A DNA stretch of 32,515 bases from contig JAICKU010000044.1 in NCBI GenBank assembly GCA_025927765.1, positions 1-32,515 on the forward strand, given 5' to 3'. Positions 2,139-18,526 of this stretch are shown in pieces (the stretch's first letter is position 1; the number at the start of each line of letters is the position of its first letter). The notes below the pieces were generated by a model. The model had not been told where the DNA came from. It worked only from the letters and a program-made list of their open reading frames with translations, and did no database searches. Both the position numbers and the translations under genes were made by a program. The stretch is from Burkholderiales bacterium. Its GTDB lineage: Bacteria; Pseudomonadota; Gammaproteobacteria; Burkholderiales; Casimicrobiaceae.

Positions 2139-2180
2139 ATTTGACACCCCGCAGCGCTCGCCTGTGTTGATCGAGGTCAA
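2139..2180 (-). promoter_or_regulatory. FNR/ANR-type class II promoter of usp-adh
   Basis: The palindrome TTGATCGAGGTCAA lies at 2167-2180. On the minus strand a -10-like TCAAAT lies at 2139-2144, its centre 32 bp from the palindrome centre, as expected for an activator at -41.5. The predicted start near 2132 leaves a leader of about 50 bases with GGAGG before the usp ATG. The plus strand has no gene to serve here. Confidence 0.7.
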
Positions 2181-2330
2181 CGGCGACTCCTGGATGAGCA
2201 CAGGTATCGATGCCCAACGGGCCGCCGCGTCCGTCGACGTCGCGCCTCCTCGATGTACGACTGACGCCGAACCGGACGGCGATAACGCGGCCGACGCCAT
2301 CGGGACGATCGCCGCTTCGAATGCGTCGCG

Positions 2331-4727
2331 TCAGTGCGCCTCCATTTCGCTTGTCGTCCATTTCCAGTCGCGCACCTCGGGCATGTCGTCGCCGTACTCG
2401 CGGATGTAGCGCTCGTGGTCCTGCAGCCTGTCGCGCAGCCATTGCTTGACGTAGGCCGCGCGGGCGCCGAGCGAGGGCACGCGATCGATGACGTCGCCGA
2501 CGAGATGGTAGCGGTCGAGGTCGTTGCGCACGACCATGTCGAACGGCGTCGTCGTCGTGCCTTCTTCCTTGTATCCCCGCACGTGCAGATTCGCATGGCC
2601 CGCTCGCCGGTAAGCGAGGCGATGGATCAGCCACGGATAACCGTGGAAGGCGAAGACGATCGGTCGATCACGCGTGAAGAGCACGTCGAAATCGGCGTCG
2701 GACAGCCCGTGCGGATGCTCGCTTCGAGGTTGCAGCGTCATCAGGTCGACCACGTTGACGACGCGTAACTTGAGGTCGGGAAACTGTGCGCGCAGGATGC
2801 TGACCGCGGCCAGCGTCTCGAGCGTCGGAACGTCGCCCGCACACGCCATCACGATGGCGGGTTCGTCGCCGCGATCGTTGCTCGCCCATTCCCAGATCCC
2901 GATGCCGGCGGTGCAGTGGCTGATCGCCGATGCCATATCCAACCACTGCGGAGCCGGCTGCTTGCCCGCGACGATGACGTTGACGCAATTGCGGCTGCGC
3001 AGGCAGTGGTCGGTCACGCATAGAAGCGTGTTTGCATCCGGCGGTAAATAAACGCGCACGACGTCGGCCTTCTTGTTCAAGACGTGGCCGATGAAGCCCG
3101 GGTCCTGGTGGCTGAAGCCGTTATGGTCCTGCCGCCACACGTGCGACGTGAGCAGGTAGTTGAGCGAGGCGATCGGGGCCCGCCACGCGATCCTGCACAC
3201 TGCCTCCAGCCACTTCGCGTGCTGGTTGAACATCGAGTCGACGATGTGGATGAACGCTTCGTAGCAGTTGAAGAGCCCATGGCGCCCGGTGAGGAGGTAG
3301 CCCTCGAGCCAACCCTCGCATTGATGCTCGCTCAGCATTTCCATCACGCGCCCATCGGGCGCCACGTGATCGTCGCCGGGCTCGATCTCTGCAGTGAAGC
3401 AGCGATCGGTCGCTTCGAACACGGCATCCCAGCGATTCGACGCAGTCTCGTCCGGGCTGAAGATGCGGAAATTGCGCGCCTCGGCATTTGCCCGCAGCAC
3501 GTCGCGGACCCATCGCCCCTGGATCCGCGTCGCCTCGGCCGTGGTTTCTCCCGGCGCTCGCACGGCGACCGCATGTTCGCGAAAATCGGGCAGACGCAAG
3601 GCGCGCAGCAGCAAGCCGCCGTTCGCATGCGGGTTTGCACCCATCCGTCGGTTGCCCTCAGGGGCGAGCTCGGCGAGTCGAGGAACGAGCCGGCCGTTCG
3701 CATCGAAGAGCCGCTCCGGTCGGTAGCTCCGCAGCCACTGCTCGAGGATTTGCAGATGGGCGGGCTTGGTGTCGAAGTCGGCGACCGGCACCTGGTGGGC
3801 GCGAAACCTTCCCTCGATCTGCGCTCCGTCCACGACCTTGGGGCCCGTCCAGCCCTTCGGCGTGCGCAAGACGATCATCGGCCAGCGCGGCCGGCGTGTG
3901 AACCCGTGCACGCGCGCTTCGTGCTGGATGCGACGAATCTCGGCGATGATCGAATCGAGCGTGGTCGCCATGCGCTCGTGCATGGGCAGCGGATCGTCGC
4001 CTTCGACGAAATGGGGCGCATACCCGTAGCCACGCAGGAGTGCGTCCAGCTCGTCGCGCGGTATGCGCGCGAGCACGGTGGGACCCGAGATCTTGTACCC
4101 GTTGAGATGCAGGATCGGGAGCACCGCACCGTCGCGGACCGGATTGAGATATTTGTTCGAGTGCCAGCTCGTGGCGAGCGGGCCGGTTTCAGCTTCGCCG
4201 TCGCCGATGACGCACGCCACGAGCAGGTCGGGGTTGTCGAAAGCCGCGCCGAACGCGTGCGAAAGGCTGTAGCCAAGCTCGCCGCCTTCGTTGATCGAAC
4301 CGGGTGTTTCCGGCGCCGCATGGCTCGGTATCCCGCCCGGGTAGGAAAACTGGGTGAAGAGCCTCTTCAGGCCGGGCTCGTCGCGGCTGACGTTCGGGTA
4401 GATCTCGCTGTACGGTCCCTCGAGGTACGTGTTGGCGACCACGCCCGGCCCGCCGTGGCCCGGGCCGGCCACGAAAATCATGTCGACGTTCCGCTCGCGG
4501 ATTATGCGGTTCAGATGCACGTAGACGAAGTTGAGCCCGGGTGTCGTGCCCCAATGGCCGAGGAGCCGCTGCTTGATGTCGGAACGCTGCAACGGGCGCC
4601 GCAGGAGCGGGTTGTCACGGAGATAGATTTGCCCGACGGTCAGGTAGTTGGCCGCACACCAGTATTCATGGATCGCCGCCAGCAGGCCCGGCTCGAGGCT
4701 TGCCGCGGTCGTCGCTTCATCGTTCAC
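2331..4727 (-). CDS. xfp: Xylulose-5-phosphate/fructose-6-phosphate phosphoketolase
   Basis: A 798-residue thiamine-diphosphate enzyme that splits xylulose 5-phosphate (or fructose 6-phosphate) with phosphate into acetyl phosphate plus glyceraldehyde 3-phosphate (or erythrose 4-phosphate). The family start YLTVGQIYL, the GPGHGGPG loop (88-95) and the cofactor motif [10 protein letters not shown] (175-184) are visible, and the length is full. The start is a GTG with GAGGA nine bases upstream; no later start fits the family N-terminus. It lies between the usp-adh pair and the acetate kinase cluster, so its acetyl phosphate can feed AckA or Pta. A near-consensus FNR site lies only 27-40 bases upstream, too close to activate this gene in the usual class II way, so its promoter is unclear. 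Confidence 0.96.
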
Positions 4728-4753
4728 TCGGATGTCCTCGTGTCATAGCCGAT

Positions 4754-4795
4754 ATGACCTGCATCAAGCGTCGCCGGGTTCCTCGCGCGCACAAT
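4754..4795 (+). promoter_or_regulatory. FNR-type promoter facing a truncated usp gene
   Basis: ATGACCTGCATCAA (4754-4767) matches the FNR consensus except at one outer base. On the plus strand CACAAT (4790-4795) has its centre 32 bp from the site centre, class II spacing, and predicts a start near 4802. The ATG of the usp remnant lies at 4823. On the minus strand the same geometry would put the start inside the phosphoketolase gene, so I assign it to the plus strand. Confidence 0.55.
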
Positions 4796-4822
4796 TTCGT
4801 GATGACTTTGCGGGCGAGTGCC

Positions 4823-4915
4823 ATGACGTTCAAATCCATTCTTGTCCCCATCGACAACACCGCCGCCGGCGAACGGCGAGTCGGCGTCGCTGCCGACATC
4901 GCTCGCCGACGCGCG
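4823..4915 (+). pseudogene. 5' remnant of a universal stress protein gene
   Basis: The ATG at 4823 begins MTFKSILVPIDNTAAGERR, followed by VGVAADIARR. This is the first strand and helix of a Usp domain (compare MFKRILVALDGS in the intact neighbour). After about 30 codons the similarity stops and the frame runs on as Arg-rich sequence antisense to the acetate kinase gene; no ATP-binding GxxG loop follows. I infer that a deletion removed the rest and joined the stump to the acetate kinase 3' end. The 3' limit given is approximate. The FNR-type promoter at 4754-4795 still points at it. Confidence 0.65.
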
Positions 4916-4957
4916 GGCTCGGCGCCCGCAGCCCGCTGCAGGCGTCGACGGCAACGA

Positions 4958-6133
4958 TCACGCGAGCAGGCGCTGTGCGTGATGCGCGACCATCAGGTTC
5001 TCGTCCGTCGGAATCACCCACGCCGAGGCGCGCGCACCGTCGCGCGAGATGCGCACGGCATGGCGCTCGTTCGCGGCGTTGTCAAGTGCGACGCCGAGCC
5101 AGGCGGCATCTCGGCAGACGCGCGCGCGGATCGGCGCGGCATGCTCGCCGATCCCGGCGGTGAAGACGATCGCGTCGAGTCCTCCGAGTGCCGCTGCGAG
5201 CGAGCCCAGCTCGCGCCCGACCCGGTAGACGAAGAGGTCGACGGCCTCCTTCGCTTTCGCATCGTCGCTCGCGAGCAGCACGCGCATGTCGCTCGACGAC
5301 TGCGATACGCCGAGCAGCCCGGAACGCTGGTAGAGCATGCGCTCGAGCTCGCTCGCCTCCATCCCTTCGTGCGAAAGGAGATAGAGCACGACGCCAGGGT
5401 CGAGGCTCCCGCAGCGCGTACCCATCACGAGGCCGTCGAGCGCGGTGAAGCCCATCGTCGTTGCCACCGGCCGGCCGGCGTGGATCGCGCACATGCTCGC
5501 GCCGTTGCCGAGGTGCGCGACGACCAGCTTCGCGTTCACCAACTTCGGGGCGACGCGCGGGAGTGCCGAAACGATGTATTCGTACGAAAGACCGTGGAAG
5601 CCATAGCGGCGAATGCCTTTCGCGGTCAGCTCGCGCGGCAATGCGAACGCACGCGCGACGTCCGGCTGGCGGCGGTGGAAGGCGGTGTCGAAGCACGCGA
5701 TTTGCGGCACGTCCGGCGCCAGCGCCGCCATCGTCCGGATTCCCGCAATCTCGACGGGCTGATGCAGCGGCGCGAGCGGGACGAGCGCGTCGAGCGTGGC
5801 GAGGACCGAATCGTCCACGAGCACGGGCGCGGAAAAGATTGCGCCGCCGTGGACGAGGCGGTGCGCGACGGCAGTGAAGGCCGGGTCGGCTTCGCTGGCC
5901 ACGAGCCAGCGATGAACGAGCGCGATGGCGTCGGCGTGCGTCGCCGCAACCGCCGCGTCATCGATCAACACGCGACGCGACGCATCGACGGCACGAAAAT
6001 GCGGCGCGATGCCGATCGCGTCCACTTCGCCCTGCTTCGCGAGCGCCGGCGTGTCGTCCGGTGCACAGTCGAAGATGGAAAACTTGACGCTCGACGAGCC
6101 CGCGTTGAGGACGAGGATCCGCTCGCGCGTCAT
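4958..6133 (-). CDS. ackA: Acetate kinase
   Basis: A 391-residue cytoplasmic enzyme of the ASKHA fold: acetyl phosphate + ADP gives acetate + ATP. Visible signatures are NAGSSSVKF near the N-terminus, RRYGFHGLSYEYI, AHLGNGASM, GTRCGSLDPG and FTAGIGEHA. Length is normal. The ATG at 6133 starts four bases after the TGA of the phosphotransacetylase gene; the longer frame upstream overlaps that gene and lacks homology. Its place downstream of two P-type ATPases and a Pta, and near phosphoketolase, suggests substrate-level ATP formation when respiration is limited. Confidence 0.96.
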   Translation of the reverse strand: MTRERILVLNAGSSSVKFSIFDCAPDDTPALAKQGEVDAIGIAPHFRAVDASRRVLIDDAAVAATHADAIALVHRWLVASEADPAFTAVAHRLVHGGAIFSAPVLVDDSVLATLDALVPLAPLHQPVEIAGIRTMAALAPDVPQIACFDTAFHRRQPDVARAFALPRELTAKGIRRYGFHGLSYEYIVSALPRVAPKLVNAKLVVAHLGNGASMCAIHAGRPVATTMGFTALDGLVMGTRCGSLDPGVVLYLLSHEGMEASELERMLYQRSGLLGVSQSSSDMRVLLASDDAKAKEAVDLFVYRVGRELGSLAAALGGLDAIVFTAGIGEHAAPIRARVCRDAAWLGVALDNAANERHAVRISRDGARASAWVIPTDENLMVAHHAQRLLA

Positions 6134-6137
6134 GGCG

Positions 6138-7091
6138 TCATGTCGTGAGCCTGCTGATCGGCATCGTGGCGGTGCGCGTGGCATGCGCATGGAGCACCAC
6201 GATCGCGCAACTCGCCATGCGTGCGCGCATGTTGTCCGCGCGGCTCGTCAGAATGATCGGCACGCGTGCACCAAGCACGATGCCCGCTGCATCGGCGTTG
6301 GCGAGAAAGGTGAGTTCCTTCGCGAGCATGTTGCCGGCTTCGAGGTCGGGGACGACCAGGATATCGGCGTCGCCGGCAACGTCGGACTTGATTTCCTTCA
6401 TCGCCGCCGCTTCGCGGCTCACGGCGTTGTCGAAGGCGAGCGGGCCGTCGACGAGCCCGCCGCGGATCTGCCCGCGCTCGGCCATCTTGCACAACGCGGC
6501 GGCGTCGATCGTCGACGGCAGCTTCGACGTCACGGTCTCCACCGCCGACAGGACCGCGACCTTCGGCGTGGCGATGCCGAGCGCATGCGCGAGATCGATG
6601 GCGTTCTGCACGATGTCGACCTTGTCCTCGAGGGTCGGCGAGATGTTGATCGCGGCGTCGGTGATAAGGAGCGGCTTCGGGTACATCGGCACGTCCATGA
6701 CGAACACGTGGCTCACGCGCCGTGCCGTGCGGATGCCGGTATCGGTTCGCAGCACTTCCGCCATCAGCTCGTCGGTGTGCAGGCTCCCTTTCATCAACGC
6801 GTCGACCTTGCCGGCGCGCACGATCTCGACCGCCTTGGCCGCCGACGCGTGACTGTGCGGCGTGTCGACGAGCTCGAGCGTCCCGATGTCGAGCGACAGC
6901 GCATCGGCAAGCGCGCGAATGCGTGCGGACGGACCAACAAGGATCGGCTCGATCAAGCCAAGCGCGGCGGCTTCGACGGCGGCCGAAAGTGACGTTTCGT
7001 CGCATGGATGCACGACGGCCGTGCGCACCGGCGGCAATTGCCGGCAGCGCCGGATCAGCGCGTCGTATTTCTCGTGTCGCCGTTGCGTCAT
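6138..7091 (-). CDS. Phosphate acetyl/butyryltransferase
   Basis: A 317-residue enzyme of the short Pta/Ptb family that exchanges CoA and phosphate on acyl groups (acetyl phosphate to acetyl-CoA and back). Family features are the central MKGSLHTDELM, the stretch VFVMDVPMYPKPLLITDAA, and the C-terminal GDADILVVPDLEAGNML. It lacks the long N-terminal regulatory domain of the 700-residue Pta. The ATG (7091) overlaps the TGA of the upstream ATPase as ATGA, so translation is probably coupled. With acetate kinase directly downstream this is the classic Pta-AckA pair. Acetyl rather than butyryl preference is inferred from context. Confidence 0.92.
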   Translation of the reverse strand: MTQRRHEKYDALIRRCRQLPPVRTAVVHPCDETSLSAAVEAAALGLIEPILVGPSARIRALADALSLDIGTLELVDTPHSHASAAKAVEIVRAGKVDALMKGSLHTDELMAEVLRTDTGIRTARRVSHVFVMDVPMYPKPLLITDAAINISPTLEDKVDIVQNAIDLAHALGIATPKVAVLSAVETVTSKLPSTIDAAALCKMAERGQIRGGLVDGPLAFDNAVSREAAAMKEIKSDVAGDADILVVPDLEAGNMLAKELTFLANADAAGIVLGARVPIILTSRADNMRARMASCAIVVLHAHATRTATMPISRLTT

Positions 7092-9601
7092 CGCGTGACC
7101 TCGTACGTCCCCAGCATCTCGTAGACGGCGTTCAGGACGCCCAGGGCAAACCATAGCATCAGGGTCGCGACACCCAGGATCAGCCCGTCGGCCGCCAACG
7201 GCATCGCCATGCGAAAGAACTGGCGCAATGGCGACACGAGCACGATCAGCGAATACATCGCCATCGTGCCGAGCACGATCGCCCACAGCGCCCGATTGGC
7301 GGCGGCGACGTGGCGAAGCATGCGACGTCCGCCGGCGCGCGCGAATAGGATCAGCGACAGGTTCGCGACGATGATCGCCGTGAACGCAAGAAGACGCGTC
7401 CGTTCCTCCGGCATGTTCTCCCGGAGTGCGAACCCGTAGACGACCAGGCAGAAAGCGAGCGCGATCACGCCTTCGAGCACGGCGAGCGCGAACACGCGCC
7501 CGCCGAGCAGCCGTGTGCCTGCGCGCCGCGGCGCGCGGCGCATCACGTCGGACTCGGCCGGTTCGGCCTCGAAGGCGATCGAGCACGCGGGATCGATCAC
7601 GAACTCGAGAAAGACGACGTGCGCGGGAAAGAGCACGAGCGGTCCCCCGACGAGCACGGGCAGAAGGCCGAGCCCGGCGATCGGCACGTGCACGGAGACG
7701 AGGTACGACAGCGCCTTGCGCAGGTTGTCGAAGATCGTGCGCCCCTGCCGGATCGCGCGCACGATCGAGCCGAAATCGTCGTCGAGCAGCACGAGGTCGG
7801 CCGCTTCGCGCGCCACGTCCGTGCCCCGCGCGCCCATGGCGATTCCGATCTGTGCCGCCTGCAATGCGGGCGCGTCGTTCACGCCGTCGCCGGTCATCGC
7901 GACGACGTGCCCGCCGCGTGCGAGCGCCTCGACGATGCGCAGCTTCTGCGCGGGCACGACGCGTGCGAACACATCGCTCGTCGCGAGGCGAATGGCGAAC
8001 TCGTCATCGGTCATCGCATCGACTTGCGTGCCCGTCACCACCACCGGGTCGTCGCTGACGCCGGCTTCCCGCGCGATCGCACGCGCGGTGACGGCGAAAT
8101 CGCCGGTGATGACGATCACGCGCACGCCGGCGCTGCGGCATTCGCGCATCGCCTTCGGTACCGAGGGACGCAGCGGGTCGACAAGGCCGACGAGGCCGAC
8201 GAACGCGAGGGGCAGCGCGCGTGGATCGTCGGGAAGCGCTGCCGCGCCATACTCGCACCGGGCAACGCCGAGGACGCGCATGCCGCTCGCCGCCATCGAC
8301 GTGGCTTCGTGCAGCACCGCCTCTGCCTCGCCTGGCGCCAATGCACATGCTGCGACGATCGCTTCCGGCGCGCCTTTCGCGGCGACGAGCAGTGGCCTCG
8401 ATTGCGGATCGCGCCACGCGTGCGTGACGATCAGCCGCCGGGACGAAAGCGGATAGCGGCGGACGAGTTCGGCTGGCCGCGCGGACGACGGTGCGTGGAG
8501 TTCGTGGAACGCGCGCTCCATGGGATCGAGCGGGCGCGGCTCGCTCGCGAGAACACCGATGCGGACCACCTCTGCAAACGGGTCGGGTACGTCGCGTCCC
8601 GTCACTTCGAAGACCTGCCCGTTTGCGTAGATCCTTCGCACCGTCATGCGGTTCTGCGTCAACGTGCCGGTCTTGTCGACGCAAAGCACGGTCGCGGCGC
8701 CGAGCGCCTCGATCGCCGCGATGCGTCTTGTCAGCACACGGGCGCGCGTCATGCGCCAGGCGCCGAGCGCGAGGAACACCGTGAGCACGACCGGGAACTC
8801 CTCGGGAAGTATCGCCATCGCGAGCGTCACGCCGGCGAGGATGCCGCCGAGCCATCCGCCGCGCGTCGCGACATAGACGGCGACGAGCAGCGCACAGACG
8901 AAGAACGCGAGCACCGAGAACGCCAGCACGAGCCCGCGCATCTCGTGTTGCAGCGCAGTCGCCTGCGTGTCGAGCCGTTCGAGCGAGCGGCCGATGCGGC
9001 CCATCTCGCTCTGCGCGCCGGTTGCCGTCACGCGTGCGAGACCTTGGCCACGCACGACGAGCGTCCCGGCGAACACTCTCGATGCACCGTCGGGAACCGG
9101 ATCGCGGGATGGCGACTTCATCACCGGCACCGATTCGCCGGTCAGCAGCGATTCGTCGACGTTCACAACGTCGCCTTCGAGCAGCACGCCGTCGGCGGCG
9201 ACGCGATCGCCTTCGCCGATGACGAGTACGTCGTCGACGACCACCTCGCGGCCCGGAATGCGCCGCTCGATGCCGTCGCGGATCACGAGGGCGCGCGGAC
9301 TCGCGAGATCGCGCAGCGCCTCGAGCACGCGCTCGGTCTTGAATTCCTGGTAGAGCGTGATCGCCATCACGACGACCACCGATGCGGCGAGGAACGCCGC
9401 CTCGACGCGGTCGCCGAGCGCGAGATAGATGGCAACGGCCGCGACGAGCAGGCCGAACATGGGTTCCGCGAGCGCATGGAGGGCGCTTGCGAGAAACGAG
9501 CGCGCCCGGCTTCGCGGCAGCTCGTTCGGGCCGTGCTTCGCGAGCCGCCGTTGCGCGTCTTCGCCGGTGAGGCCATGCACTCGATCGCCCGCGGCGCTCA
9601 T
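7088..9601 (-). CDS. Cation-transporting P-type ATPase (PEEFP type)
   Basis: An 837-residue inner-membrane ion pump. In order it has an N-terminal cation ATPase domain (LTGEDAQRRLAKHGPNELP), the actuator TGES (154-157), a TM4 motif PEEFP (266-270), the phosphorylation site DKTGT (309-313), KGAPE in the nucleotide domain, the hinge TGDGVNDAPA, and a C-terminal set of membrane helices. Overall it looks like the Ca2+-type P2 pumps, but those usually have PEGLP in TM4, so the ion cannot be assigned. The ATG overlaps the upstream Mg-type ATPase stop as ATGA, and its own stop overlaps the pta start, so it is the second gene of a coupled four-gene operon. Confidence 0.93.
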   Translation of the reverse strand: MSAAGDRVHGLTGEDAQRRLAKHGPNELPRSRARSFLASALHALAEPMFGLLVAAVAIYLALGDRVEAAFLAASVVVVMAITLYQEFKTERVLEALRDLASPRALVIRDGIERRIPGREVVVDDVLVIGEGDRVAADGVLLEGDVVNVDESLLTGESVPVMKSPSRDPVPDGASRVFAGTLVVRGQGLARVTATGAQSEMGRIGRSLERLDTQATALQHEMRGLVLAFSVLAFFVCALLVAVYVATRGGWLGGILAGVTLAMAILPEEFPVVLTVFLALGAWRMTRARVLTRRIAAIEALGAATVLCVDKTGTLTQNRMTVRRIYANGQVFEVTGRDVPDPFAEVVRIGVLASEPRPLDPMERAFHELHAPSSARPAELVRRYPLSSRRLIVTHAWRDPQSRPLLVAAKGAPEAIVAACALAPGEAEAVLHEATSMAASGMRVLGVARCEYGAAALPDDPRALPLAFVGLVGLVDPLRPSVPKAMRECRSAGVRVIVITGDFAVTARAIAREAGVSDDPVVVTGTQVDAMTDDEFAIRLATSDVFARVVPAQKLRIVEALARGGHVVAMTGDGVNDAPALQAAQIGIAMGARGTDVAREAADLVLLDDDFGSIVRAIRQGRTIFDNLRKALSYLVSVHVPIAGLGLLPVLVGGPLVLFPAHVVFLEFVIDPACSIAFEAEPAESDVMRRAPRRAGTRLLGGRVFALAVLEGVIALAFCLVVYGFALRENMPEERTRLLAFTAIIVANLSLILFARAGGRRMLRHVAAANRALWAIVLGTMAMYSLIVLVSPLRQFFRMAMPLAADGLILGVATLMLWFALGVLNAVYEMLGTYEVTR

Positions 9602-12162
9602 GGCGCGCGTTCCAGCGTCCCGATCGACGCGCGCGGACGCCCGCGGATCCGCGCGTCGTGTGCCTGAAATGCGCGCTTCTTCACGAGTTGCGCGAGCACG
9701 AGATAGACGGCGACGAGCACGACGAGCACCACGAAGAACGTGGCCGGGGGCGCGACGAAGCCCACCAGCGGGCCGAGCGGCGTGAACGGCAGCGCGAGTG
9801 CGACGCAGAGCACGCCGAGCGATGTCGCCACCAGCATCGGATGCGGCCGGCTCGAAAGCGGATCGTGCCGCGTGCGAATGATGAAGATGACGAGCACCTG
9901 CGTGGCGATCGACTCGATGAACCAGCCGGTCTGGAAGAGAGCGACGCCCGCTCCGAGCAGCAGCAGCACGCCGAACGTCAGCAGGTCGAAAAGCGAGCTC
10001 ACCGGCCCGAGTACCAGCATGAAGCGCCGGATCTCGCGCACGTCCCATACGTGCGGCCGCCGCAGCTCGGACTCGTCGACGCGGTCGAACGGAATCGCCG
10101 TCTCCGACACGTCGTAGAGCAGGTTGTTGAGCAGGATCTGTACGGGAAGCATGGGCAGGAACGGGAGGAACAGCGTCGCCGCCGCCATGCTGAGCATGTT
10201 CCCGAAGTTCGAGCTCGTCGCCATCATCAGGTACTTCATGATGTTCGCGTAGGTGCGCCGGCCCTCGAGCACGCCGTCGCGCACGACGCCGAGCCGCCCG
10301 CGCGTGAGGATCACGTCGGCCGCTTCGCGCGCGACGCCAACCGCGCCCTGCACCGAGATGCCGACGTCGGCGGCGTGCATCGCGGGTGCGTCGTTGATGC
10401 CGTCGCCGATGAAGCCCACGATGCGCCCCCGCGATCGCAGCGCCTGGACGATGCGCGTCTTCTGCGCGGGCGACACGCGTGCAAAGAGCTTCGCGCGCAA
10501 GGCGGCCGCAGCCAGCGCATCGCCGGCAAGCGCGTCGATGTCGCGTCCCGTCAGGACGTCGGTCACGTCGACGTGCAGCGCGCCGCACACGTGACGCGCC
10601 ACGCGCTCGTTGTCACCGGTCAGGATCTTCATCTCGATGCCGGCGCGCGCGAGTGCGGCCACGGCATGGGCCGCATCCGCGCGAGGCGGATCGAGGAATG
10701 TCACGAAGCCTTCGAACGCGAGGCCGGATTCGTCGGCCGGTTCGAGCCGTTCGCCTTCGCGGTCGAGGCGGCGCGTCGCGACCGCGAGCACGCGCAGGCC
10801 CTGCTCGCCGAGCGCATGGAAGCGAGCGATGGCCGCGTCGTTGTCCGATGCGCAAAGATCGCGCACGTTGCCGTCCGGGGTAGCGATGCGGTTACAGCGC
10901 CCGAGGACGTCCTCGGGCGCGCCCTTGACGATCAGCAGCGGTCCCGCATCGGTCGCGACGAGGATCGAGACGACGCGCCGCACGAAATCGAACGCGAGCT
11001 CGTCGAGCTTGCGGTACCGCTCCGGATCGCGATCGTCGCGGTCGGCAAGCAGTGCGTCGTCGAGCGGGCTCCGGACGCCGGTGGCGAAGCGGCTGTTGAC
11101 GCGCGCGAGGCGCAGGACGCGATCGCCGGCGGCGCCGTCCGCGCCTTCTGCATTCGCGACGCAAATCCGCGCCTCGGTGAGCGTCCCCGTCTTGTCCGAG
11201 CACAGCACGTCGATGCTGCCGAGCGCGTAGATCGCTGACGGCCGCTTGACGATCACGTGGCTCCGCGCAAGGCGCAACGCGCCGCGAGCGAGCGTCACCG
11301 ACACGATCATCGGTAGAAGCTCCGGCGTGAGCCCCACGGCGAGCGCGACCGCGAACAGGAAGGACTCGAGCCAGGGCCGATGGAACGCGGCATTGACGAG
11401 CACCACGAACAGCACGAGGAAAATCGTGAGCCGCAGGATCATCAAGCCGAAGCGGTGCACGCCGCGCTCGAGCGGTGGCTCGGGCCGCTCGGAGGCGAGC
11501 TCGCCGGCCATCGATCCGAGCAGGGTCGCGCCGCCGGTCTTCTCGACGACGAAGCGCCCCGCGCCGCTCGCGATCGACGAGCCCATGCGCATCGCGTGCT
11601 CTGCCGCACCTTCGCCCACGTGCTTCTCGACGGGAAACGGCTCGCCGGTCAGCGCGGCTTCGTTGACGAAGAGCCGGTCCGCGTCGACCAGGGTTCCATC
11701 GGCGGGCACGACGTCGCCGGCGCGAAGCAGCGCGAGATCGCCGGGCACGACCTGTGCGACCGGCACTGCGCGGCGTTCGCCGTCGCGCACGACGATCGCC
11801 GTCGCCGCGATTGTCGCCTGCAAACGCGCAAGCGCGCGCTCGGCACGGTGCTCCTGGACGAAGTCGAGCGTCACGCTGGCGACGACGATTACGAGGATGA
11901 TCGTCATGCTCGTCGTTTCGCCGGTCCAGCCGAGCACGGCGCTCGCCGTCATCAGGAGCAGGACGAGCGGGTTGCGGAAGTGCAGCAGGTATTCGACGAA
12001 GACGGCGTGCCGCGCGCTCGCGAGAACGACGTTCGGGCCGTACGCCACGAGTCGCTCGCGTGCCTCGCGCGCGGTCAGCCCGGACGCGGCGGTGCGATCG
12101 CCGGGAGCACGCTCGCCCTCGTGCATCTCGTGCTCCATCGACGGCGAAGGACGATCTTCCAT
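9598..12162 (-). CDS. Magnesium-type P-type ATPase (MgtA/MgtB family)
   Basis: An 854-residue inner-membrane pump. It shows the actuator TGEP (172-175), TM4 motif PELLP (280-284) as in MgtA, DKTGT (323-327), the hinge IGDGINDAPA, and the family signature TYANIMKYLMMATSSNFGNM followed by FLPFLPMLPVQILLNNLLYD. MgtA pumps import Mg2+ using ATP. The chosen ATG (12162) lies downstream of the predicted FNR-type promoter start near 12187; the longer frame from 12216 would begin upstream of that. The N-terminal ~25 residues are acidic and His/Met/Glu rich. It is the first gene of the ATPase-ATPase-pta-ackA operon. No magnesium-sensing leader was recognised, so control by oxygen rather than Mg2+ is inferred. 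Confidence 0.92.
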   Translation of the reverse strand: MEDRPSPSMEHEMHEGERAPGDRTAASGLTAREARERLVAYGPNVVLASARHAVFVEYLLHFRNPLVLLLMTASAVLGWTGETTSMTIILVIVVASVTLDFVQEHRAERALARLQATIAATAIVVRDGERRAVPVAQVVPGDLALLRAGDVVPADGTLVDADRLFVNEAALTGEPFPVEKHVGEGAAEHAMRMGSSIASGAGRFVVEKTGGATLLGSMAGELASERPEPPLERGVHRFGLMILRLTIFLVLFVVLVNAAFHRPWLESFLFAVALAVGLTPELLPMIVSVTLARGALRLARSHVIVKRPSAIYALGSIDVLCSDKTGTLTEARICVANAEGADGAAGDRVLRLARVNSRFATGVRSPLDDALLADRDDRDPERYRKLDELAFDFVRRVVSILVATDAGPLLIVKGAPEDVLGRCNRIATPDGNVRDLCASDNDAAIARFHALGEQGLRVLAVATRRLDREGERLEPADESGLAFEGFVTFLDPPRADAAHAVAALARAGIEMKILTGDNERVARHVCGALHVDVTDVLTGRDIDALAGDALAAAALRAKLFARVSPAQKTRIVQALRSRGRIVGFIGDGINDAPAMHAADVGISVQGAVGVAREAADVILTRGRLGVVRDGVLEGRRTYANIMKYLMMATSSNFGNMLSMAAATLFLPFLPMLPVQILLNNLLYDVSETAIPFDRVDESELRRPHVWDVREIRRFMLVLGPVSSLFDLLTFGVLLLLGAGVALFQTGWFIESIATQVLVIFIIRTRHDPLSSRPHPMLVATSLGVLCVALALPFTPLGPLVGFVAPPATFFVVLVVLVAVYLVLAQLVKKRAFQAHDARIRGRPRASIGTLERAP

Positions 12163-12193
12163 GAAGGGCCGTCTGTTGCTGTCCACGTCCGGG

Positions 12194-12235
12194 ATGAAAG
12201 CGGATGCGCGATGCACCGGTGTTGACGACGGTCAA
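12194..12235 (-). promoter_or_regulatory. FNR-type promoter of the ATPase-pta-ackA operon
   Basis: The perfect palindrome TTGACGACGGTCAA (12222-12235) is followed on the minus strand by TTTCAT (12194-12199), a 4/6 match to a -10 box, with 32 bp between centres. The predicted start near 12187 precedes the ATG at 12162. The same palindrome also faces the Hsp20 gene. Confidence 0.6.
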
Positions 12236-12262
12236 TACCGGCCGCATCCGGGCTCCTATGAT
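12222..12262 (+). promoter_or_regulatory. FNR-type promoter of hsp20-CBS
   Basis: The shared palindrome at 12222-12235 is followed on the plus strand by TATGAT (12257-12262), a 5/6 match to a -10 box, centre spacing 31 bp. The predicted start near 12269 gives an untranslated leader of about 90 bases before hsp20. No strong -35 box is needed or seen, which fits an activator-dependent promoter. Confidence 0.68.
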
Positions 12263-12359
12263 GGATGCGTTCGGTGCGCGACGCCGTCACTGAATCGCCA
12301 CCGGACCGGTCAGGCGGCGCCGGGTCTTCATAGTCTCGACAACGACACGGAGGAGCACG

Positions 12360-12797
12360 ATGGCCAATCTGACACACTTCAATCCGCTTGTGGAACTGGC
12401 TCGCTTCGATCCGTTCCGCGAGTTCGACGAGACGTTCCGGATGCCGCGCGGAGTTCTGCGCGCGCTGCCCGAGGAGCCCCAGATCCGGATGGACGTCACC
12501 GAGGACGACAAGGGCTACCACGTCCGCGCCGAGATCCCGGGCGTACGCAAGGACGACATCAAGGTCTCGATCGACGGCAACCGCGTGTCGATTCAGGCGG
12601 AGGTGCGCAAGGAGAAGGAAGAAAAGAAAGGGGAGACGCTCCGCAGCGAACGCTACTATGGCACGCAGTATCGAGGTTTCACGCTCGCCCAGGACATCGA
12701 CCAGGCGAGCGCCGACGCCACCTATGAGAGCGGCATCCTGTCGCTGACGTTGCCGAAGAAGGCGCCGCGTCGTGCGACCGAAGTCGCCGTCAAGTAA
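12360..12797 (+). CDS. Small heat shock protein (Hsp20)
   Basis: A 145-residue ATP-independent chaperone that holds unfolding proteins in the cytoplasm. A short N-terminal arm (with FDPFREFDETFR) is followed by the alpha-crystallin domain from about residue 42 (IRMDVTEDDKGYHVRAEIPG) to about 134, ending in the family motif YESGILSLTLPKK. The C-terminal I/V-x-I/V anchor is weak (VAVK). GGAGGA lies seven bases before the ATG. It is the first gene of a two-gene unit with the CBS-BON protein. An FNR-type site instead of a heat-shock element in front points to induction by oxygen loss. Confidence 0.95.
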   Translation: MANLTHFNPLVELARFDPFREFDETFRMPRGVLRALPEEPQIRMDVTEDDKGYHVRAEIPGVRKDDIKVSIDGNRVSIQAEVRKEKEEKKGETLRSERYYGTQYRGFTLAQDIDQASADATYESGILSLTLPKKAPRRATEVAVK

Positions 12798-12833
12798 TAC
12801 CGTCGAGGCGGCCACGCGCTAACGGAGGATGCC

Positions 12834-13565
12834 ATGAAAACCGAAGACGTGATGACGCGGGCCGTGGTGACGGTTGGGCCGGACGCGACGTTGCGCGAAG
12901 CGATCGAGCGGATGGTGTCGTACCGAATCAGCGGCGTGCCCGTCGTCGATTCGAGCGGCAAACTCGTCGGCATGTTGACGGAAGGCGACCTCGTCCGCCG
13001 GACCGAGATGGGCACCGAGGCACCGCGCCGGCGCTGGCTCGAGCTCTTGCTCGGCCCGGGATCGCGCGCCGACGACTATTCGCGCACGCACGGCGTGCGT
13101 GTCCGGGACGTGATGTCCCCGAACGTCGTCGCGGCCGCGCGCGACACGCCACTGCACGAGATCGTGCGGCAGATGGAGGAGCACGCCATCAAGCGCGTGC
13201 CGGTCGTCGAGAAGGGCAAGCTTGTCGGCATCGTGAGCCGCGCCGATCTCGTCGCCGCGCTCGCGCACCACCTTGCACCCGGGAGCGAAACGCTGGTCAC
13301 CGACGAGGCTATCCGCCGCCGCATCGTGGCGGCGATGAAGCGCGAGGCATGGTGTCCGTCGCACTCGCTGCGCGTGTCCGTGCACGACGGCGTCGCTCGC
13401 ATCGACGGCATGGTCTTCGACCAGCGCGAGCGTCGGGCGCTGCACGTGCTACTCGAAACGATGGAAGGCGTTCGTGGCATCGACGATCGCGTCGTATGCG
13501 TCGAGCCGATGTCGGGCACGGTCGTCGACGAGCCGTCAGGCGGCGTCGAACCCGTGCAACGATAG
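12834..13565 (+). CDS. CBS-pair protein with C-terminal BON domain
   Basis: A 243-residue soluble protein. CBS1 spans about 1-57 (MKTEDVMTRAVVTVGPDATL, then GVPVVDSSGKLVGMLTEGDL). A ~35-residue linker follows, CBS2 spans about 90-145 (VRDVMSPNVV, then RVPVVEKGKLVGIVSRADL), and a BON-like domain runs from about 160 to 225 (LRVSVHDGVARIDGMV). CBS pairs sense adenosine nucleotides; BON domains are linked to membrane or ligand binding. GGAGG lies before the ATG, 36 bases after hsp20. I infer an energy-state sensor in the low-oxygen set; its target is unknown. It ends 15 bases from the convergent ABC ATPase stop, with no terminator visible. Confidence 0.92.
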   Translation: MKTEDVMTRAVVTVGPDATLREAIERMVSYRISGVPVVDSSGKLVGMLTEGDLVRRTEMGTEAPRRRWLELLLGPGSRADDYSRTHGVRVRDVMSPNVVAAARDTPLHEIVRQMEEHAIKRVPVVEKGKLVGIVSRADLVAALAHHLAPGSETLVTDEAIRRRIVAAMKREAWCPSHSLRVSVHDGVARIDGMVFDQRERRALHVLLETMEGVRGIDDRVVCVEPMSGTVVDEPSGGVEPVQR

Positions 13566-13580
13566 CGAGCGTGAAAGCCA

Positions 13581-14435
13581 TTATTTCCGGGCCGTGCTGC
13601 CGGCGCAGTTCGACGAGTGCGTGCGGTTCGACGGGACGAACGCGGTGACGCCGTTCGCCGCGCGCGAGCCCTCCGGGTTGCCGGAGGCGTACCCGCTCGG
13701 CGTCTGATCGAGAGCGTCCGCCTGGTGCATCTCGCGCACGTTCGGCCGGTCGTTCACGATCCGGCCGTCGACGAGCTCGATGATGCGATCGCAGCGCCGC
13801 GCAAGCCGCGGGTCGTGCGTGACGATCAGGAACGTCGTCTTCTGCACTTCGTTCACCTTGCGCAGCAGGTCGAACACCGCGTCGGCCGACTGCGTGTCGA
13901 GATTGCCGCTCGGCTCGTCGGCCAGCACGAGCGCCGGCGACATCGCGAGGGCGCGCGCAATCGCGACTCGCTGCTGCTGACCCCCCGACAGGTCGTTCGC
14001 CTTGTGATGCGCACGATCGGCGAGGCCCACCTCCGCGAGGAGCCCGCCGGCCGTTTCGCGCATCGCTCGATCGGGGCGTCCGTGCGCCGCCATCATCGGC
14101 ATCATGACGTTCTCGAGCGCGGTGAACTCGGGCAGCAGATAGTGGTACTGGAAGACGAAGCCGATCGTGCGGCCGCGCAGTTGCGTCCGTTGCGCTTCGT
14201 CGAGCCGCGCCGAGGCTGCACCGGCGATCCACACTTCGCCCGTCGTCGGTCGATCGAGCAGGCCCATCACGTTCAGGAGCGTGCTCTTGCCCGATCCCGA
14301 CGGGCCGATCAACGCCGTGAACTCGCCACGATCGAGCGTCAGGTCGATTCCGTGCAGCACCTCGAGCTCGGCTGGCGTGCCGAGGGCATAGGACTTGTGC
14401 ACGCCGTCGAGGCGAAGGACCGGCGACTCGTTCAT
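13581..14435 (-). CDS. Exporter ABC ATPase (MacB/LolD/DevA type)
   Basis: A 284-residue ATPase that drives the permease encoded just upstream. Visible are Walker [11 protein letters not shown]-loop [12 protein letters not shown], signature LSGGQQQR, Walker [14 protein letters not shown] and the switch VTHD. Homologues of about 230 residues end after VDGRIV; this one runs on for about 50 residues of Ser/Asn/Ala-rich sequence without known features. In the DNA that tail includes a perfect hairpin (13670-13687). The ATG lies two bases after the permease stop. It is the third gene of the membrane-fusion/permease/ATPase operon, so an export or lipid-extraction system. Confidence 0.92.
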
Positions 14436-14437
14436 CG

Positions 14438-15660
<1,223 letters not shown>

Positions 15661-15664
<4 letters not shown>

Positions 15665-16968
15665 CGTGCGCGGCCCGCGGCGAACGTGACGGGACGCACG
15701 TGCTGGCCCTCCCTGACGCGGACGTTCGTCGCCGGCACCATCACGTCGCCCGCCGTGAGGCCGGAAACGATTTCGACCGCGCTGTCGCCGCGCAGACCCA
15801 GCGTCACCGGTTGCTTCGCTGTCCGGCCGCCGTGCACGGTGAGCACCCAGGGTTCGCGCGTCGCCGCATCATGCAACGCGTCGGCAGGCGCGATCAGCAC
15901 GTCGTTGCGCCGCGCGACTTCGATGTCGACCGATACCGTCATGTCCTGTCGCAGGTACGCGGGCGGATCCGGCACGCGGAGCTTGACCTGCACGGCGCCG
16001 CGTACCGCATCGATGCCTGGGTTCACGTAGAAGAGGTCGGCGGCGAACGTGTCACCGGGAAACGCGTCGGCCGACGCGAGCGCCTTCTGGCCGAGCGCGA
16101 GCTTGCCGAGGTTGCGCTCGTCGATGTTCACGACGAGTTGCGTCTCGCCGGCGGGGGCGAGAACGAGAAGCTCCTTGCCGGCCTGCGCCACGTCGCCCGA
16201 CTCGACGCTTCGCGCGATCAGCACTCCATTGGAAGGCGCGCGAATGAGGGTCGCCGCGAGCTTCGCCTCGGCCACGGTCACCTGCGCCTCCGCCTCCCGC
16301 AGGCTCGTCTGCGCGACCAAATAATCGGCGCCGCCGGGCCGCGCGTTCACGACCTGCAGTTGCGCGGTGCGCACCTGGCTACGGGCGATGTCGAGGTTGC
16401 GCTTCGCGTCGTCCAGTTGAGAGGGCGACACGAAATGGCTCGCGACGAGGTCGCTGGTGCGCTGGTACGTGCGCTCGGCCTGCGTCAGATTCGCTTGCGC
16501 CTGCGCAAGCGACTGCATCGCCATGGGCAGCGCCGAGGCGGTCATCTGGGCGAGCTTCGCCTGCGCTTGCGCGCGCGCCGCCTGCGCCTGCGCCAACGCG
16601 GCGCGCTCGTCGGACTGGTCGAGCTCGACCAGCACCTGGTCGCGTCGCACGGTGTCGCCTTCATCGACGGGAACGCGCGCGACGCGTCCGGTGATCTCCG
16701 ACGCGATCGACGCGCGCTGCGGCGTGATCACCTGGCCGCTCGCGACGACGCTTTGCACGAGATTTCCGCGCACGACCGAGTAGACGTCGACCGGCTTGTC
16801 GATGACGCGGAGCCAGACGAGCGTGGCGCCGCCGATCGCGATCGCCAGCGCAAGCGCGATGCCCGGCGCATGCCTTCGCACGATCGACACGAGCGTCGGC
16901 TTTCGACGGTCCTGGCCGATGACCGCCGTTCCTGCTCCGCCCGCCACGCCTTTTCCGATACGACGCAT
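15661..16968 (-). CDS. Membrane-fusion (HlyD/DevB-type) protein
   Basis: A 435-residue periplasmic adaptor. A cytoplasmic N-terminus leads to one membrane helix ([17 protein letters not shown]), then the lipoyl half-motif [11 protein letters not shown], a long Ala/Gln-rich coiled-coil hairpin ([20 protein letters not shown] onward), the second lipoyl half with [20 protein letters not shown], and beta-barrel and proximal domains. It would link the permease to an outer-membrane channel of the TolC class, which is not in this window. The ATG at 16968 overlaps the stop of a nine-residue upstream reading frame; longer in-frame starts lie upstream of the predicted promoter. The FNR-type promoter at 17018-17058 precedes it. 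Confidence 0.9.
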
Positions 16969-16997
16969 CACCTGCGCGCCGGCTGCTCGAACTGCAT
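16968..16997 (-). CDS. Possible 9-residue leader peptide
   Basis: ATG at 16997 with AGAGGA placed seven bases upstream opens MQFEQPARR and stops at TGA, whose A is the first base of the adaptor ATG (TGATG). The predicted transcript start is near 17011. The adaptor itself has only a weak ribosome site, so coupled translation through this leader is plausible. No codon bias suggesting an amino-acid attenuator is seen. Confidence 0.4.
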   Translation of the reverse strand: MQFEQPARR

Positions 16998-17017
16998 GTT
17001 CGTTCCTCTCGCAGGCG

Positions 17018-17058
17018 ATTGTAGGGACGCCGCGAGGCGACGTATTGACTGCGGTCAA
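17018..17058 (-). promoter_or_regulatory. FNR-type promoter of the exporter operon
   Basis: The perfect palindrome TTGACTGCGGTCAA (17045-17058) is followed on the minus strand by TACAAT (17018-17023), a 5/6 match to a -10 box, with centres 31 bp apart. Predicted start near 17011. The palindrome also faces the ligase gene on the other strand. Confidence 0.7.
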
Positions 17059-17086
17059 GACCGGGACGGGACGCTGCGCGCAAGAT
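17045..17086 (+). promoter_or_regulatory. FNR-type promoter of the PaaK-like ligase
   Basis: The same palindrome has CAAGAT (17081-17086) 32 bp away centre to centre on the plus strand. It matches the -10 consensus at three positions, including the second A and final T. The predicted start near 17093 coincides with the first ATG, so the transcript would be leaderless or the ATG at 17135 would be used. Confidence 0.45.
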
Positions 17087-17092: not shown

Positions 17093-18526
17093 ATGAGCGG
17101 CTTTCCCGCACAGCGCTTCACTGGCGGCGACGTCATGCGAGCCGCCGTGGATGCGATCGCCGTTGCGTCGAAAGTCGCTGAAATCTCGTGGACCAGAACC
17201 GCGGGACGCGACGCCGTGCGCATGGCCGCGTCGGGCCGCTTCGCCGAGATCGTCCGCATCGCGCGGGCCCGTTCTCCCTATTACCGTCGTCTGTGGCGCG
17301 CGCTGCCCGATCGTCCGTTGTCGCTACGCGAACTGCCCGTCGTCACGAAACGCGATCTGATGGCGAATTTCGACGACTGGGCAACGGAGCGGCAGATCGA
17401 CCGTCGCGGGGTCGAGCGCTTTCTCGCCGATCGCAGCCACATCGGTGCCGATTACCTCGGCCGTTTCGTCGTCTGGAAAAGCTCGGGCAGCTCGGGCGAG
17501 CCGGGGATCTACGTGCAGGACCGCGACGCGCTGTCGACCTACGACGCGCTTCTGATCGTGCAGTTGCTGTCGCTGCAGGTTGTCGCCCGCTATGCATGGA
17601 GCCTCGCCGCGAACGGCGGCCGCGCGGCACTCGTCGCCGCGACGGGCGACCATTTCGCCAGCATCGCGTCGTGGCAGCGCGTATGTCGCGGCATGCCGTG
17701 GCCGAGCGCGCGGGCGTTCTCGGTGATGGAGCCGCTGCCTGCACTCGTCGAGAAGCTCAATCGCTTTGCGCCCTCGTTTCTCGCGAGCTATCCGACGACA
17801 CTCGCCGCACTGGCCGGGGAACAACGATCACGCCGGCTGCGCATTTCCCCTACCTGCATCTGGTCGGGCGGCGAACATCTGTCGGATCCCGCGCGCGAGT
17901 CGATCGAGGCGGCGTTTCGCGCGATCGTGATCAACGAATACGGCGCGTCCGAGTGCATGAGCATCGCCTTCTCGTGCCCGCGCGGCGCGCTGCACGTGAA
18001 TGCCGACTGGGTGATGCTCGAACCCGTCGATCGTGACTACCGGCCTACGCCCCCCGGCGAGCGCTCGCACACGGTGCTGCTCACGAATCTCGCCAACCGC
18101 GTGCAGCCGATCATCCGCTACGACCTCGGCGACAGCATCACCGCGAGCGAGCGCGCGTGCCGCTGCGGCAGTGCGTTGCCGGTCATTCGCGCCGAAGGTC
18201 GTCGCGACGACGTGCTCGTCCTGAAGGCGCACGACGGAAGCATCGTGCGCCTGTCGCCGCTCGCACTCACCACGGTGGTCGAAGACGCGACGACGTGCCA
18301 CCCGTTCCAGTTGCTGCAGACGGCCCCCGATTGCATCGCGGTCAGGCTCTGCGCCCGCGATCCGCGCTCACGCCGCGAAGGCCTGCGCTCCGCGACGCGG
18401 GCGTTGCACGCGTATCTGGCCCACCAGTCGCTCGGCAACGTGCGTGTGGTTGCCGACGACACGCCGCCGCTGCCTGACGCCCGAAGCGGCAAGCTTCGCG
18501 AGGTCGTCTACCACTCGTCGTCCTGA
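17093..18526 (+). CDS. PaaK/F390-synthetase-like adenylate-forming ligase
   Basis: A protein of 477 residues (463 if it starts at ATG 17135, which has GGCGG upstream). The phosphate loop KSSGSSGEPGIYV, the adenine-binding INEYGASECMS, and the hinge region QPIIRYDLGDSI with a following CRCG pair place it with phenylacetate-CoA ligase and coenzyme F390 synthetase relatives. These activate a carboxylate or phosphate-bearing substrate with ATP. No phenylacetate, F420 or polyketide genes are nearby, so the substrate is unknown. It is transcribed divergently from the exporter operon and shares its FNR-type palindrome, hinting that it may activate a compound that the exporter moves or anchors. Confidence 0.85.
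   Translation: MSGFPAQRFTGGDVMRAAVDAIAVASKVAEISWTRTAGRDAVRMAASGRFAEIVRIARARSPYYRRLWRALPDRPLSLRELPVVTKRDLMANFDDWATERQIDRRGVERFLADRSHIGADYLGRFVVWKSSGSSGEPGIYVQDRDALSTYDALLIVQLLSLQVVARYAWSLAANGGRAALVAATGDHFASIASWQRVCRGMPWPSARAFSVMEPLPALVEKLNRFAPSFLASYPTTLAALAGEQRSRRLRISPTCIWSGGEHLSDPARESIEAAFRAIVINEYGASECMSIAFSCPRGALHVNADWVMLEPVDRDYRPTPPGERSHTVLLTNLANRVQPIIRYDLGDSITASERACRCGSALPVIRAEGRRDDVLVLKAHDGSIVRLSPLALTTVVEDATTCHPFQLLQTAPDCIAVRLCARDPRSRREGLRSATRALHAYLAHQSLGNVRVVADDTPPLPDARSGKLREVVYHSSS

What the first reader, a model, noticed from the sequence alone, without database searches (positions are those of the whole stretch)
2139..17086. Four FNR/ANR-type palindromes wire an 16-kb low-oxygen island
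TTGATCGAGGTCAA (2167), ATGACCTGCATCAA (4754), TTGACGACGGTCAA (12222) and TTGACTGCGGTCAA (17045) all lie in promoter gaps. Each is followed, centre to centre at 31-32 bp, by a -10-like hexamer (TCAAAT, CACAAT, TATGAT or TTTCAT, TACAAT or CAAGAT). That is class II FNR geometry repeated at six promoters. The genes behind them (Usp, ADH, Pta-AckA, ATPases, Hsp20, CBS) match known low-oxygen sets such as the B. cenocepacia lxa locus. The exporter and ligase would be new members.
Basis: partly seen in the sequence, partly recalled or inferred. Interest (0 to 1): 0.78.

Follow-up and report, generated by a model that had tools for sequence, protein, structure and literature searches.

The report
Oxygen-sensor (FNR) promoters in stress island
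A cluster of stress, fermentation and transport genes in a probable betaproteobacterium carries the DNA switches of the well-known low-oxygen sensor FNR, and relatives suggest that an unstudied ligase and an exporter belong to the same low-oxygen programme.

Summary
The four palindromes are at the stated places in promoter gaps, and six -10-like hexamers lie 31-32 bp away as stated. It is not chance: the genome has 28 exact TTGAYN4RTCAA sites against 2 for the reversed control; 4 of 28 lie in called genes although about 90% is coding; outside the window 12 of 27 gene-directed promoters have a -10 at 31-32 bp against 1.9 at other distances. Other sites precede nosZ, ccoN and a NorB-type gene. 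The genome encodes an FNR with four cluster cysteines. This is an FNR-type regulon with class II promoters. 47 of 72 Hsp20 loci keep the promoter site (38 exact). Relatives support the proposed new members: the PaaK-like ligase lies behind such a site in 11 of 20 loci examined, five times in Usp or Hsp20 units; the exporter in 3 of its 4 closest usable orthologues. Corrections: site 4754 is degenerate and faces a Usp remnant; Pta-AckA has no site of its own; phosphoketolase is unsupported. Oxygen response is untested.

The parts
509..1513 (-). zinc-type alcohol dehydrogenase, second gene of the Usp-ADH unit
   Evidence: Pfam ADH_N; 18-nt gap after Usp
1532..2080 (-). universal stress protein (Usp), first gene behind site 1
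   Evidence: Pfam Usp; start
2139..2144 (-). -10-like TCAAAT, 32 bp from centre of site 1
2167..2180 (.). FNR-type site 1, TTGATCGAGGTCAA
   Evidence: exact match to TTGAYNNNNRTCAA
2331..4727 (-). phosphoketolase (XFP); no class II -10 from site 2 on this strand
   Evidence: Pfam XFP
4754..4767 (.). degenerate FNR-type site 2, ATGACCTGCATCAA (one mismatch)
4790..4795 (+). -10-like CACAAT, 32 bp from centre of site 2
4823..4909 (+). truncated Usp remnant (29 residues resembling a Usp start)
   Evidence: best outside match 48% over 29 residues (L035), E 0.011, weak
4958..6133 (-). acetate kinase
   Evidence: Pfam Acetate_kinase
6138..6956 (-). phosphate acetyl/butyryltransferase (called start; frame extends upstream)
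   Evidence: NCBIfam PRK11890 above cut-off
7088..9580 (-). P-type ATPase, PMR1-like calcium type, below that model's cut-off
   Evidence: NCBIfam
9598..12138 (-). P-type ATPase, magnesium-translocating type IIIB, first gene behind site 3 on the - strand
   Evidence: TIGR01524 above cut-off
12194..12199 (-). -10-like TTTCAT, 32 bp from centre of site 3
12222..12235 (.). FNR-type site 3, TTGACGACGGTCAA, divergent
   Evidence: exact match; a site precedes Hsp20 in 47 of 72 usable Hsp20 loci
12257..12262 (+). -10-like TATGAT, 31 bp from centre of site 3
12360..12797 (+). Hsp20 small heat-shock protein
   Evidence: Pfam HSP20
12834..13565 (+). protein with two CBS domains and a BON domain
   Evidence: Pfam CBS, BON
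13564..13704 (+). remnant: last 47 codons of a PCMT/erythromycin-esterase-type gene that is whole on contig C129
   Evidence: 68% over 47 residues, E 6e-16
13581..14435 (-). exporter ATP-binding subunit, LolD/MacB-like; its tail runs antisense through the remnant
   Evidence: NCBIfam, below equivalog cut-offs
14438..15664 (-). exporter permease, LolCE/FtsX-like
   Evidence: NCBIfam, below equivalog cut-offs
15661..16890 (-). exporter periplasmic adaptor (called start; frame extends upstream)
   Evidence: TIGR01730 above cut-off
17018..17023 (-). -10-like TACAAT, 31 bp from centre of site 4
17045..17058 (.). FNR-type site 4, TTGACTGCGGTCAA, divergent
   Evidence: exact match
17081..17086 (+). 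-10-like CAAGAT, 32 bp from centre of site 4; weak
   Evidence: score 3.0
17093..18526 (+). PaaK/F390-synthetase-like adenylate-forming ligase; the in-frame ATG at 17135 is the likelier start, as 17093 coincides with the predicted transcript start
   Evidence: TIGR02304 E 1.8e-34, below cut-off
18593..19675 (+). calcium/proton exchanger, probably co-transcribed with the ligase
   Evidence: TIGR00378 above cut-off; 66-nt gap

Best explanation
The four palindromes are operator sites of an FNR-family activator, three good and one decayed, that put this island into the genome's low-oxygen regulon. When oxygen is low, a [4Fe-4S] FNR dimer would bind TTGAY-N4-RTCAA centred near -41.5, contact RNA polymerase as a class II activator, and start transcription about 41 bp downstream without a -35 box. 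Site 1 drives Usp-ADH; site 3 is shared by two divergent promoters, Hsp20-CBS/BON one way and the series Mg-type ATPase, Ca-type ATPase, Pta, AckA the other; site 4 is shared by the three-gene exporter and the ligase-CAX unit; site 2 faces a Usp remnant and is probably a relic. Shown: sites, spacing, genome-wide enrichment, company of respiratory genes, the FNR gene, conservation in relatives. Inferred: which FNR-family protein binds, transcript starts, operon read-through and oxygen response.
For: 28 exact sites against 2 control in 4.01 Mb, 24 of 28 outside called genes where about 90% is coding. -10 of at least 2 bits at 31-32 bp in 12 of 27 gene-directed promoters outside the window against a mean of 1.86 in other two-base bins, p 7e-8. 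Sites precede NosZ, CcoN and a 2-oxoacid:acceptor oxidoreductase (above NCBIfam cut-offs), a gene with NorB and COX1 domains, a nirK-like copper oxidase (below cut-off), a hemerythrin and a second Hsp20-CBS/BON cluster. The FNR at C99:14534 keeps CxxCx5C, the fourth cysteine and the ETVSR recognition helix and matches chains named FNR type regulator at E 1e-47. Hsp20 upstream stretches: 38 exact plus 9 one-mismatch of 72 usable loci, control 0 of 72. 176 exact sites against 2 in 59 of the 73 Hsp20 loci.
Against: No transcript or binding data. Several -10s are weak (CAAGAT 3.0, CACAAT 3.7 bits). 15 of 27 off-window gene-directed promoters have no -10 of 2 bits at 31-32 bp (13 of 27 at 30-33), so many sites may act otherwise or not at all. 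Directions facing no gene still give 3 of 24 (p 0.08). The FNR scores 202 bits against NCBIfam's Fnr cut-off of 228. Two other proteins with an E-x-x-S-R helix, an FtrB-like one at C51 and an FNR-like fragment at C93, could share the sites. No exact site lies in the 3.2-kb locus of the fnr gene itself. 25 of 72 Hsp20 loci lack the site, 12 of them not titled as outside the betaproteobacteria.
Confidence: 0.9

Rival explanations
1. The sites belong to a different CRP/FNR-family activator, such as a NO-responsive DNR/NnrR or a FixK under FixLJ, so the island answers NO or another signal instead of oxygen directly.
For: The regulon includes nosZ, a NorB-type gene and a nirK-like gene; a second regulator with an E-x-x-S-R helix (FtrB-like by NCBIfam) lies between two sites on contig C51. 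In B. cenocepacia the proposed low-oxygen regulator BCAM0049 is a homologue of FixK (PMC6127331, passages).
Against: An FNR with all cluster ligands is present; ccoN, Usp and Hsp20 fit an oxygen sensor as well as or better than a NO sensor (general knowledge). Site sequence alone cannot separate the regulators.
Confidence: 0.25
2. The palindromes are only pairs of sigma-70 -35 boxes (TTGACA-like) of divergent constitutive promoters.
For: TTGAC resembles the -35 consensus (recalled).
Against: A -35 use would put the -10 about 19 bp from the site centre; 2 of 34 gene-directed promoters have one at 18-20 bp, against 18 of 34 at 31-32 bp.
Confidence: 0.02
3. Chance palindromes in a high-GC genome.
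For: 4754 is imperfect, and one-mismatch sites are not rare.
Against: 28 against 2, intergenic placement, spacing and conservation.
Confidence: 0.02

Closest known systems
FNR/ANR regulons with class II promoters (E. coli FNR, Pseudomonas ANR, Herbaspirillum Fnr1/Fnr3)
   Same: Same operator type, same spacing to the -10, same cysteine and recognition-helix residues in the regulator; in Herbaspirillum two usp genes are direct Fnr targets and fnr1 has a site centred at -42 (PMC5934665, passages).
   Different: Of 28 exact sites here 12 have two TTGAC half-sites, 15 are mixed and one is TTGATN4ATCAA, a ratio that high GC alone may explain; ligase and exporter were not mentioned in the passages seen.
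Burkholderia cenocepacia lxa locus
   Same: Usp, Hsp20 (alpha-crystallin) and the low-oxygen theme (PMC6127331, passages); the Hsp20 region of B. cenocepacia NCTC13227 (L026) has six exact sites in 20 kb, one in front of Hsp20. That L026 is the lxa locus itself was not tested.
   Different: Gene order is not shared: within 10 kb of its Hsp20, L026 shows only Usp, ADH and Hsp20 of the window's set; lxa has six Usps among 50 genes (PMC6127331, passages), here one Usp and a remnant.
Bradyrhizobium diazoefficiens micro-oxic / FixK2 set
   Same: Usp, CBS protein, Hsp20, AdhP, phosphoketolase, PCMT and a HlyD-type adaptor are micro-oxia-induced (PMC6515984, table passages).
   Different: Rhizobial FixK2 instead of FNR; the ligase listed there is PaaF beside other paa genes.
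Candidatus Accumulibacter FNR regulon
   Same: Predicted FNR motif before denitrification, cbb3 and pta genes (PMC6446978, passages).
   Different: The words Hsp20, ligase and phenylacetate do not occur in its main text.

Membership tests
FNR regulon, class II promoters | TTGAT/C-N4-A/GTCAA operator enriched over chance and intergenic | tested here: met
   28 vs 2, 24 of 28 outside called genes
FNR regulon, class II promoters | operator centred about 32 bp from the -10 centre, no -35 spacing | tested here: met
   18 of 34 at 31-32 bp, 2 of 34 at 18-20 bp; met as a set, not by every site
FNR regulon, class II promoters | FNR with four cluster cysteines and E-x-x-S-R helix in the genome | tested here: met
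   L001, though 202 bits against the NCBIfam cut-off of 228
FNR regulon, class II promoters | anaerobic/micro-oxic respiratory genes under the same sites | tested here: met
   nosZ, ccoN, NorB-type, nirK-like
FNR regulon, class II promoters | FNR binding and oxygen-dependent transcription | not testable with these tools
   no expression or binding data
B. cenocepacia lxa locus | gene content with several Usps, Hsp20, ADH | tested here: inconclusive
   Usp, ADH, Hsp20 shared with L026; one Usp plus remnant here
B. cenocepacia lxa locus | conserved gene order (orthologous locus) | tested here: not met
   against L026
PaaK (phenylacetate-CoA ligase) | equivalog score | tested here: not met
   TIGR02155 28.5 bits against cut-off 646.3; the better TIGR02304 119.5 against 251.9
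PaaK-like adenylate-forming superfamily | adenylation motifs (SSGxxGEPG, EYGxSEC, RYDLGD, SGKxR; motif roles recalled) | tested here: met
   present in the window protein and, with small changes, in 10 aligned relatives; PaaK-like PDB chains at E 2e-18 and weaker

The most novel reading that the evidence does not exclude
In this bacterial family a PaaK/F390-synthetase-like ligase is a core, unrecorded member of the FNR low-oxygen programme, travelling with Usp, Hsp20, the PCMT/esterase fusion and AckA, and together with the divergently controlled LolCDE/MacAB-like exporter it makes and exports an unknown product, or activates an acid, specifically under hypoxia.
Probability: 0.3. Interest if true: 0.6.

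Novelty: new member of a known kind. Interest (0 to 1): 0.45.

Why it matters
It turns a by-eye reading of one window into a genome-wide FNR-type regulon of a likely denitrifier and shows that Hsp20 is a widely kept target of such sites in the Burkholderia group, B. cenocepacia included. It gives two concrete orphan genes, the ligase and the exporter, a testable physiological context.

Tried and rejected
Sigma-70 -35 reading: rejected by spacing. Phosphoketolase as a target: no exact site within about 400 nt upstream of XFP in the 29 relatives' loci examined; L144 has two one-mismatch sites before an AckA-XFP unit and L157 one about 390 nt upstream. Exporter in distant relatives: 1 of 24 with a one-mismatch site, so the link holds only in the close group. 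Orthology with the B. cenocepacia region: rejected by gene order. Site 2 as a working promoter: disfavoured, it faces a remnant; a first translation in the wrong frame was redone. tRNA search of the window found none. Paper searches: one search found no paper with 4 of its 5 terms; one search listed 5 papers, one search listed 10 of 21; from these I saw listings, and passages of PMC6515984, PMC6446978 and PMC5934665, and met no report of this ligase or exporter in such a regulon. The 2013 lxa discovery paper was not held, so whether it already shows the motif is unknown to me. In PMC9733578 the words FNR, Anr, FixK, motif and promoter do not occur.

Weak points of my counts: gene calls come from a codon-usage caller of my own trained on window genes; the -10 matrix is recalled; the ligase start and the Usp remnant were added by hand as genes; contig C93 (L093), with few called genes and lower GC, was left out of the coding fraction. 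In one search some Hsp20 matches do not begin at residue 1, so part of their 350 nt is coding. Relatives are not phylogenetically independent, and L010, L104 and L193 are the same genome region. Of flanking genes of off-window sites I scanned 30, not all.
Full report
Observation. The four palindromes are present at 2167, 4754, 12222 and 17045, all between called genes. Three match TTGAYNNNNRTCAA exactly, 4754 has one mismatch. A -10-like hexamer of at least 2 bits lies 31 or 32 bp centre to centre from the site at six of the seven gene-directed promoters of the window; the seventh, phosphoketolase from site 2, has none.

Chance. TTGACNNNNGTCAA with up to two mismatches occurs 16 times in the window against 7.9 in shuffles, 0 of 100 shuffles reaching 16. 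In the whole genome (4.01 Mb, 148 contigs) exact TTGAYNNNNRTCAA occurs 28 times against 2 for the reversed control. In 61 genomes searched, own included, the motif is found in all and usually exceeds the control severalfold, with exceptions such as G064 (2 against 2), G006 (5 against 3), G067 (19 against 14), G014 (9 against 4) and G087 (14 against 7). Of the 28 own sites 25 lie outside the window; I fetched all 25 and 4 fall inside called genes, two of them at or near a called start. About 90% of the sequence read is called coding, L093 left out, so the placement is far from random.

Spacing. I scored hexamers against a TATAAT matrix (recalled frequencies) at every distance from 29 sites, the 28 exact ones plus 4754. 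Among 34 directions with a gene start within 350 nt, 18 have a hexamer of at least 2 bits at 31-32 bp; the mean for other two-base bins is 2.07 and the largest 5. Without the window, whose promoters prompted the claim, it is 12 of 27 against 1.86 (p 7e-8); 15 of 27 have none. Directions without a gene give 3 of 24 against 1.0 (p 0.08; largest other bin 4). The distance that a -35 reading would need gives 2 of 34 at 18-20 bp. As a set this is the class II FNR arrangement.

Company. Off-window sites stand before NosZ, CcoN (cbb3 oxidase), a gene with NorB and COX1 domains (no NCBIfam hit at 1e-10), a nirK-like copper oxidase with cytochrome c (193.7 bits, cut-off 296.3), a 2-oxoacid:acceptor oxidoreductase, 2-hydroxyglutaryl-CoA dehydratase-type genes, a hemerythrin, a cupredoxin and iron permease pair, glutamyl-tRNA reductase, and a second Hsp20 and CBS/BON pair on contig C129, 73% and 77% identical to the window's. 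Some sites stand before genes with no evident oxygen link (a TPR protein, an ABC binding protein, an acyl-CoA dehydrogenase).

Regulator. Five of nine HTH_Crp_2 matches pass the cut-off. One, at C99:14534, has CxxCx5C, a fourth cysteine aligned to that of solved FNR chains and the ETVSR helix; it scores 202 bits against the NCBIfam Fnr cut-off of 228. An FNR-like fragment (C93) and an FtrB-like protein with PEHFSR (C51) are the only others of the five with an E-x-x-S-R helix.

Relatives, Hsp20. The only scan of named genomes, with Hsp20, gave 73 loci. 72 have 350 nt upstream: 38 hold an exact site, 9 a one-mismatch site, 25 none, 13 of these from organisms titled as outside the betaproteobacteria (titles); the control motif, exact or with one mismatch, gives 0 of 72. 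In 59 of the 73 loci, whole length, there are 176 exact sites against 2. B. cenocepacia NCTC13227 (L026) has six.

Ligase. 39 of 149 genomes, own included, have a match; I examined the 20 best of the 29 loci returned besides the own one and fetched wider context for 14. 11 of the 14 have a site with at most one mismatch in front of the ligase or of the unit it appears to lie in: Hsp20-ligase in L193, Hsp20-PCMT/esterase-ligase in L195, a DksA/TraR-type gene and ligase in L196, Usp-ligase in L198, L199 and L200, ligase directly in L194, L202, L204, L205 and L206 (the last five with one mismatch). 7 of these 11 have a -10 of at least 2 bits at 31 bp; the three Usp-ligase cases and L196 do not. 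L197, L201 and L203 have none, nor do the six loci without wider context, two of them truncated at the start. For comparison 25 of 153 genes in all 20 regions fetched, these targets included, have such a site within 200 nt, the control 0 of 153.

Exporter. 37 of 149 genomes, own included, match the adaptor. Of 29 loci besides the own one, L164 lacks its upstream; of the other 28, 4 have a site with at most one mismatch within 450 nt, control 0 of 28. Three of them are among the four closest usable orthologues (L165, L167, L168 at 51-57%; L166 at 56% has none), each with a -10 at exactly 32 bp (GATAAT, AATAAT, TACTAT).

History of the island. The window's Hsp20-CBS/BON stretch aligns with contig C129 at 79% over 1235 bp, and the alignment then jumps to the last 47 codons of the PCMT/esterase gene that follows CBS/BON on C129; these codons remain at 13564-13704, and the exporter's ATPase tail runs antisense through them. 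With Hsp20-PCMT/esterase-ligase in L195, the simplest inference is an older order Hsp20, CBS, PCMT/esterase, ligase, from which the window lost most of one gene and gained the exporter. The ligase would then have moved from the Hsp20 promoter to the exporter's divergent site 4. This is inference from three loci.

Reading of the island. Site 1 drives Usp-ADH. Site 3 drives Hsp20-CBS/BON and, the other way, Mg-type ATPase, Ca-type ATPase, Pta and AckA with gaps of 17, 131 and 4 nt, so Pta-AckA is reached only if that unit is read through. Site 4 drives the exporter and ligase-CAX. If class II geometry holds, the ligase transcript starts at 17093, the first ATG itself, so the next in-frame ATG at 17135 is the likelier start; called frames of relatives begin at or after that point in five of ten. 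Site 2 faces the start of a Usp that breaks off after 29 residues.

Known context. lxa, its proposed regulator BCAM0049/FixK and Usp induction under Anr are described in PMC6127331 (passages); a possible Anr box before cytochrome bd in PMC9104464 (passages); Fnr control of usp and a class II promoter in Herbaspirillum in PMC5934665 (passages); micro-oxic Usp, CBS, Hsp20, AdhP, phosphoketolase and HlyD in PMC6515984 (passages); an FNR motif before pta in PMC6446978 (passages). The kind is therefore known; the ligase and exporter as members are what is new, within the limits of the searches named.

Noticed in passing
L102 (G000:C129:1-9000), 220-5412: A second low-oxygen cluster with three exact sites in 4 kb: LOG-like gene, Hsp20, CBS/BON protein, a fusion of PCMT with an erythromycin-esterase-type domain, and another CBS protein.
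   Followed up: partly
window 13564-13704: Last 47 codons of the PCMT/esterase fusion gene survive behind CBS/BON; the exporter ATPase frame ends antisense inside them, which may explain its 284 aa against 228-246 aa in four relatives.
   Followed up: partly
window 4823-4909: Start of a Usp gene that breaks off after 29 residues, still behind a degenerate site and -10.
   Followed up: partly
L093 (G000:C93:1-14000): Contig with lower GC (0.625), only 35% called coding and a fragmentary FNR-like HTH; may be foreign, degraded or misbinned.
   Followed up: no
L085 (G000:C51:36200-44200): Two exact sites around a nitronate monooxygenase, an FtrB-like CRP/FNR regulator and cytochrome oxidase genes, with -10s at 32-33 bp in three directions.
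   Followed up: partly
window 18593-19675 and 7088-12138: A calcium/proton exchanger and two P-type ATPases (Mg type and Ca-like type) share the island, an unexplained divalent-cation theme.
   Followed up: no
L195 and L193: In two relatives AckA follows Usp under its own FNR-type site, unlike the window, where AckA follows Pta.
   Followed up: no
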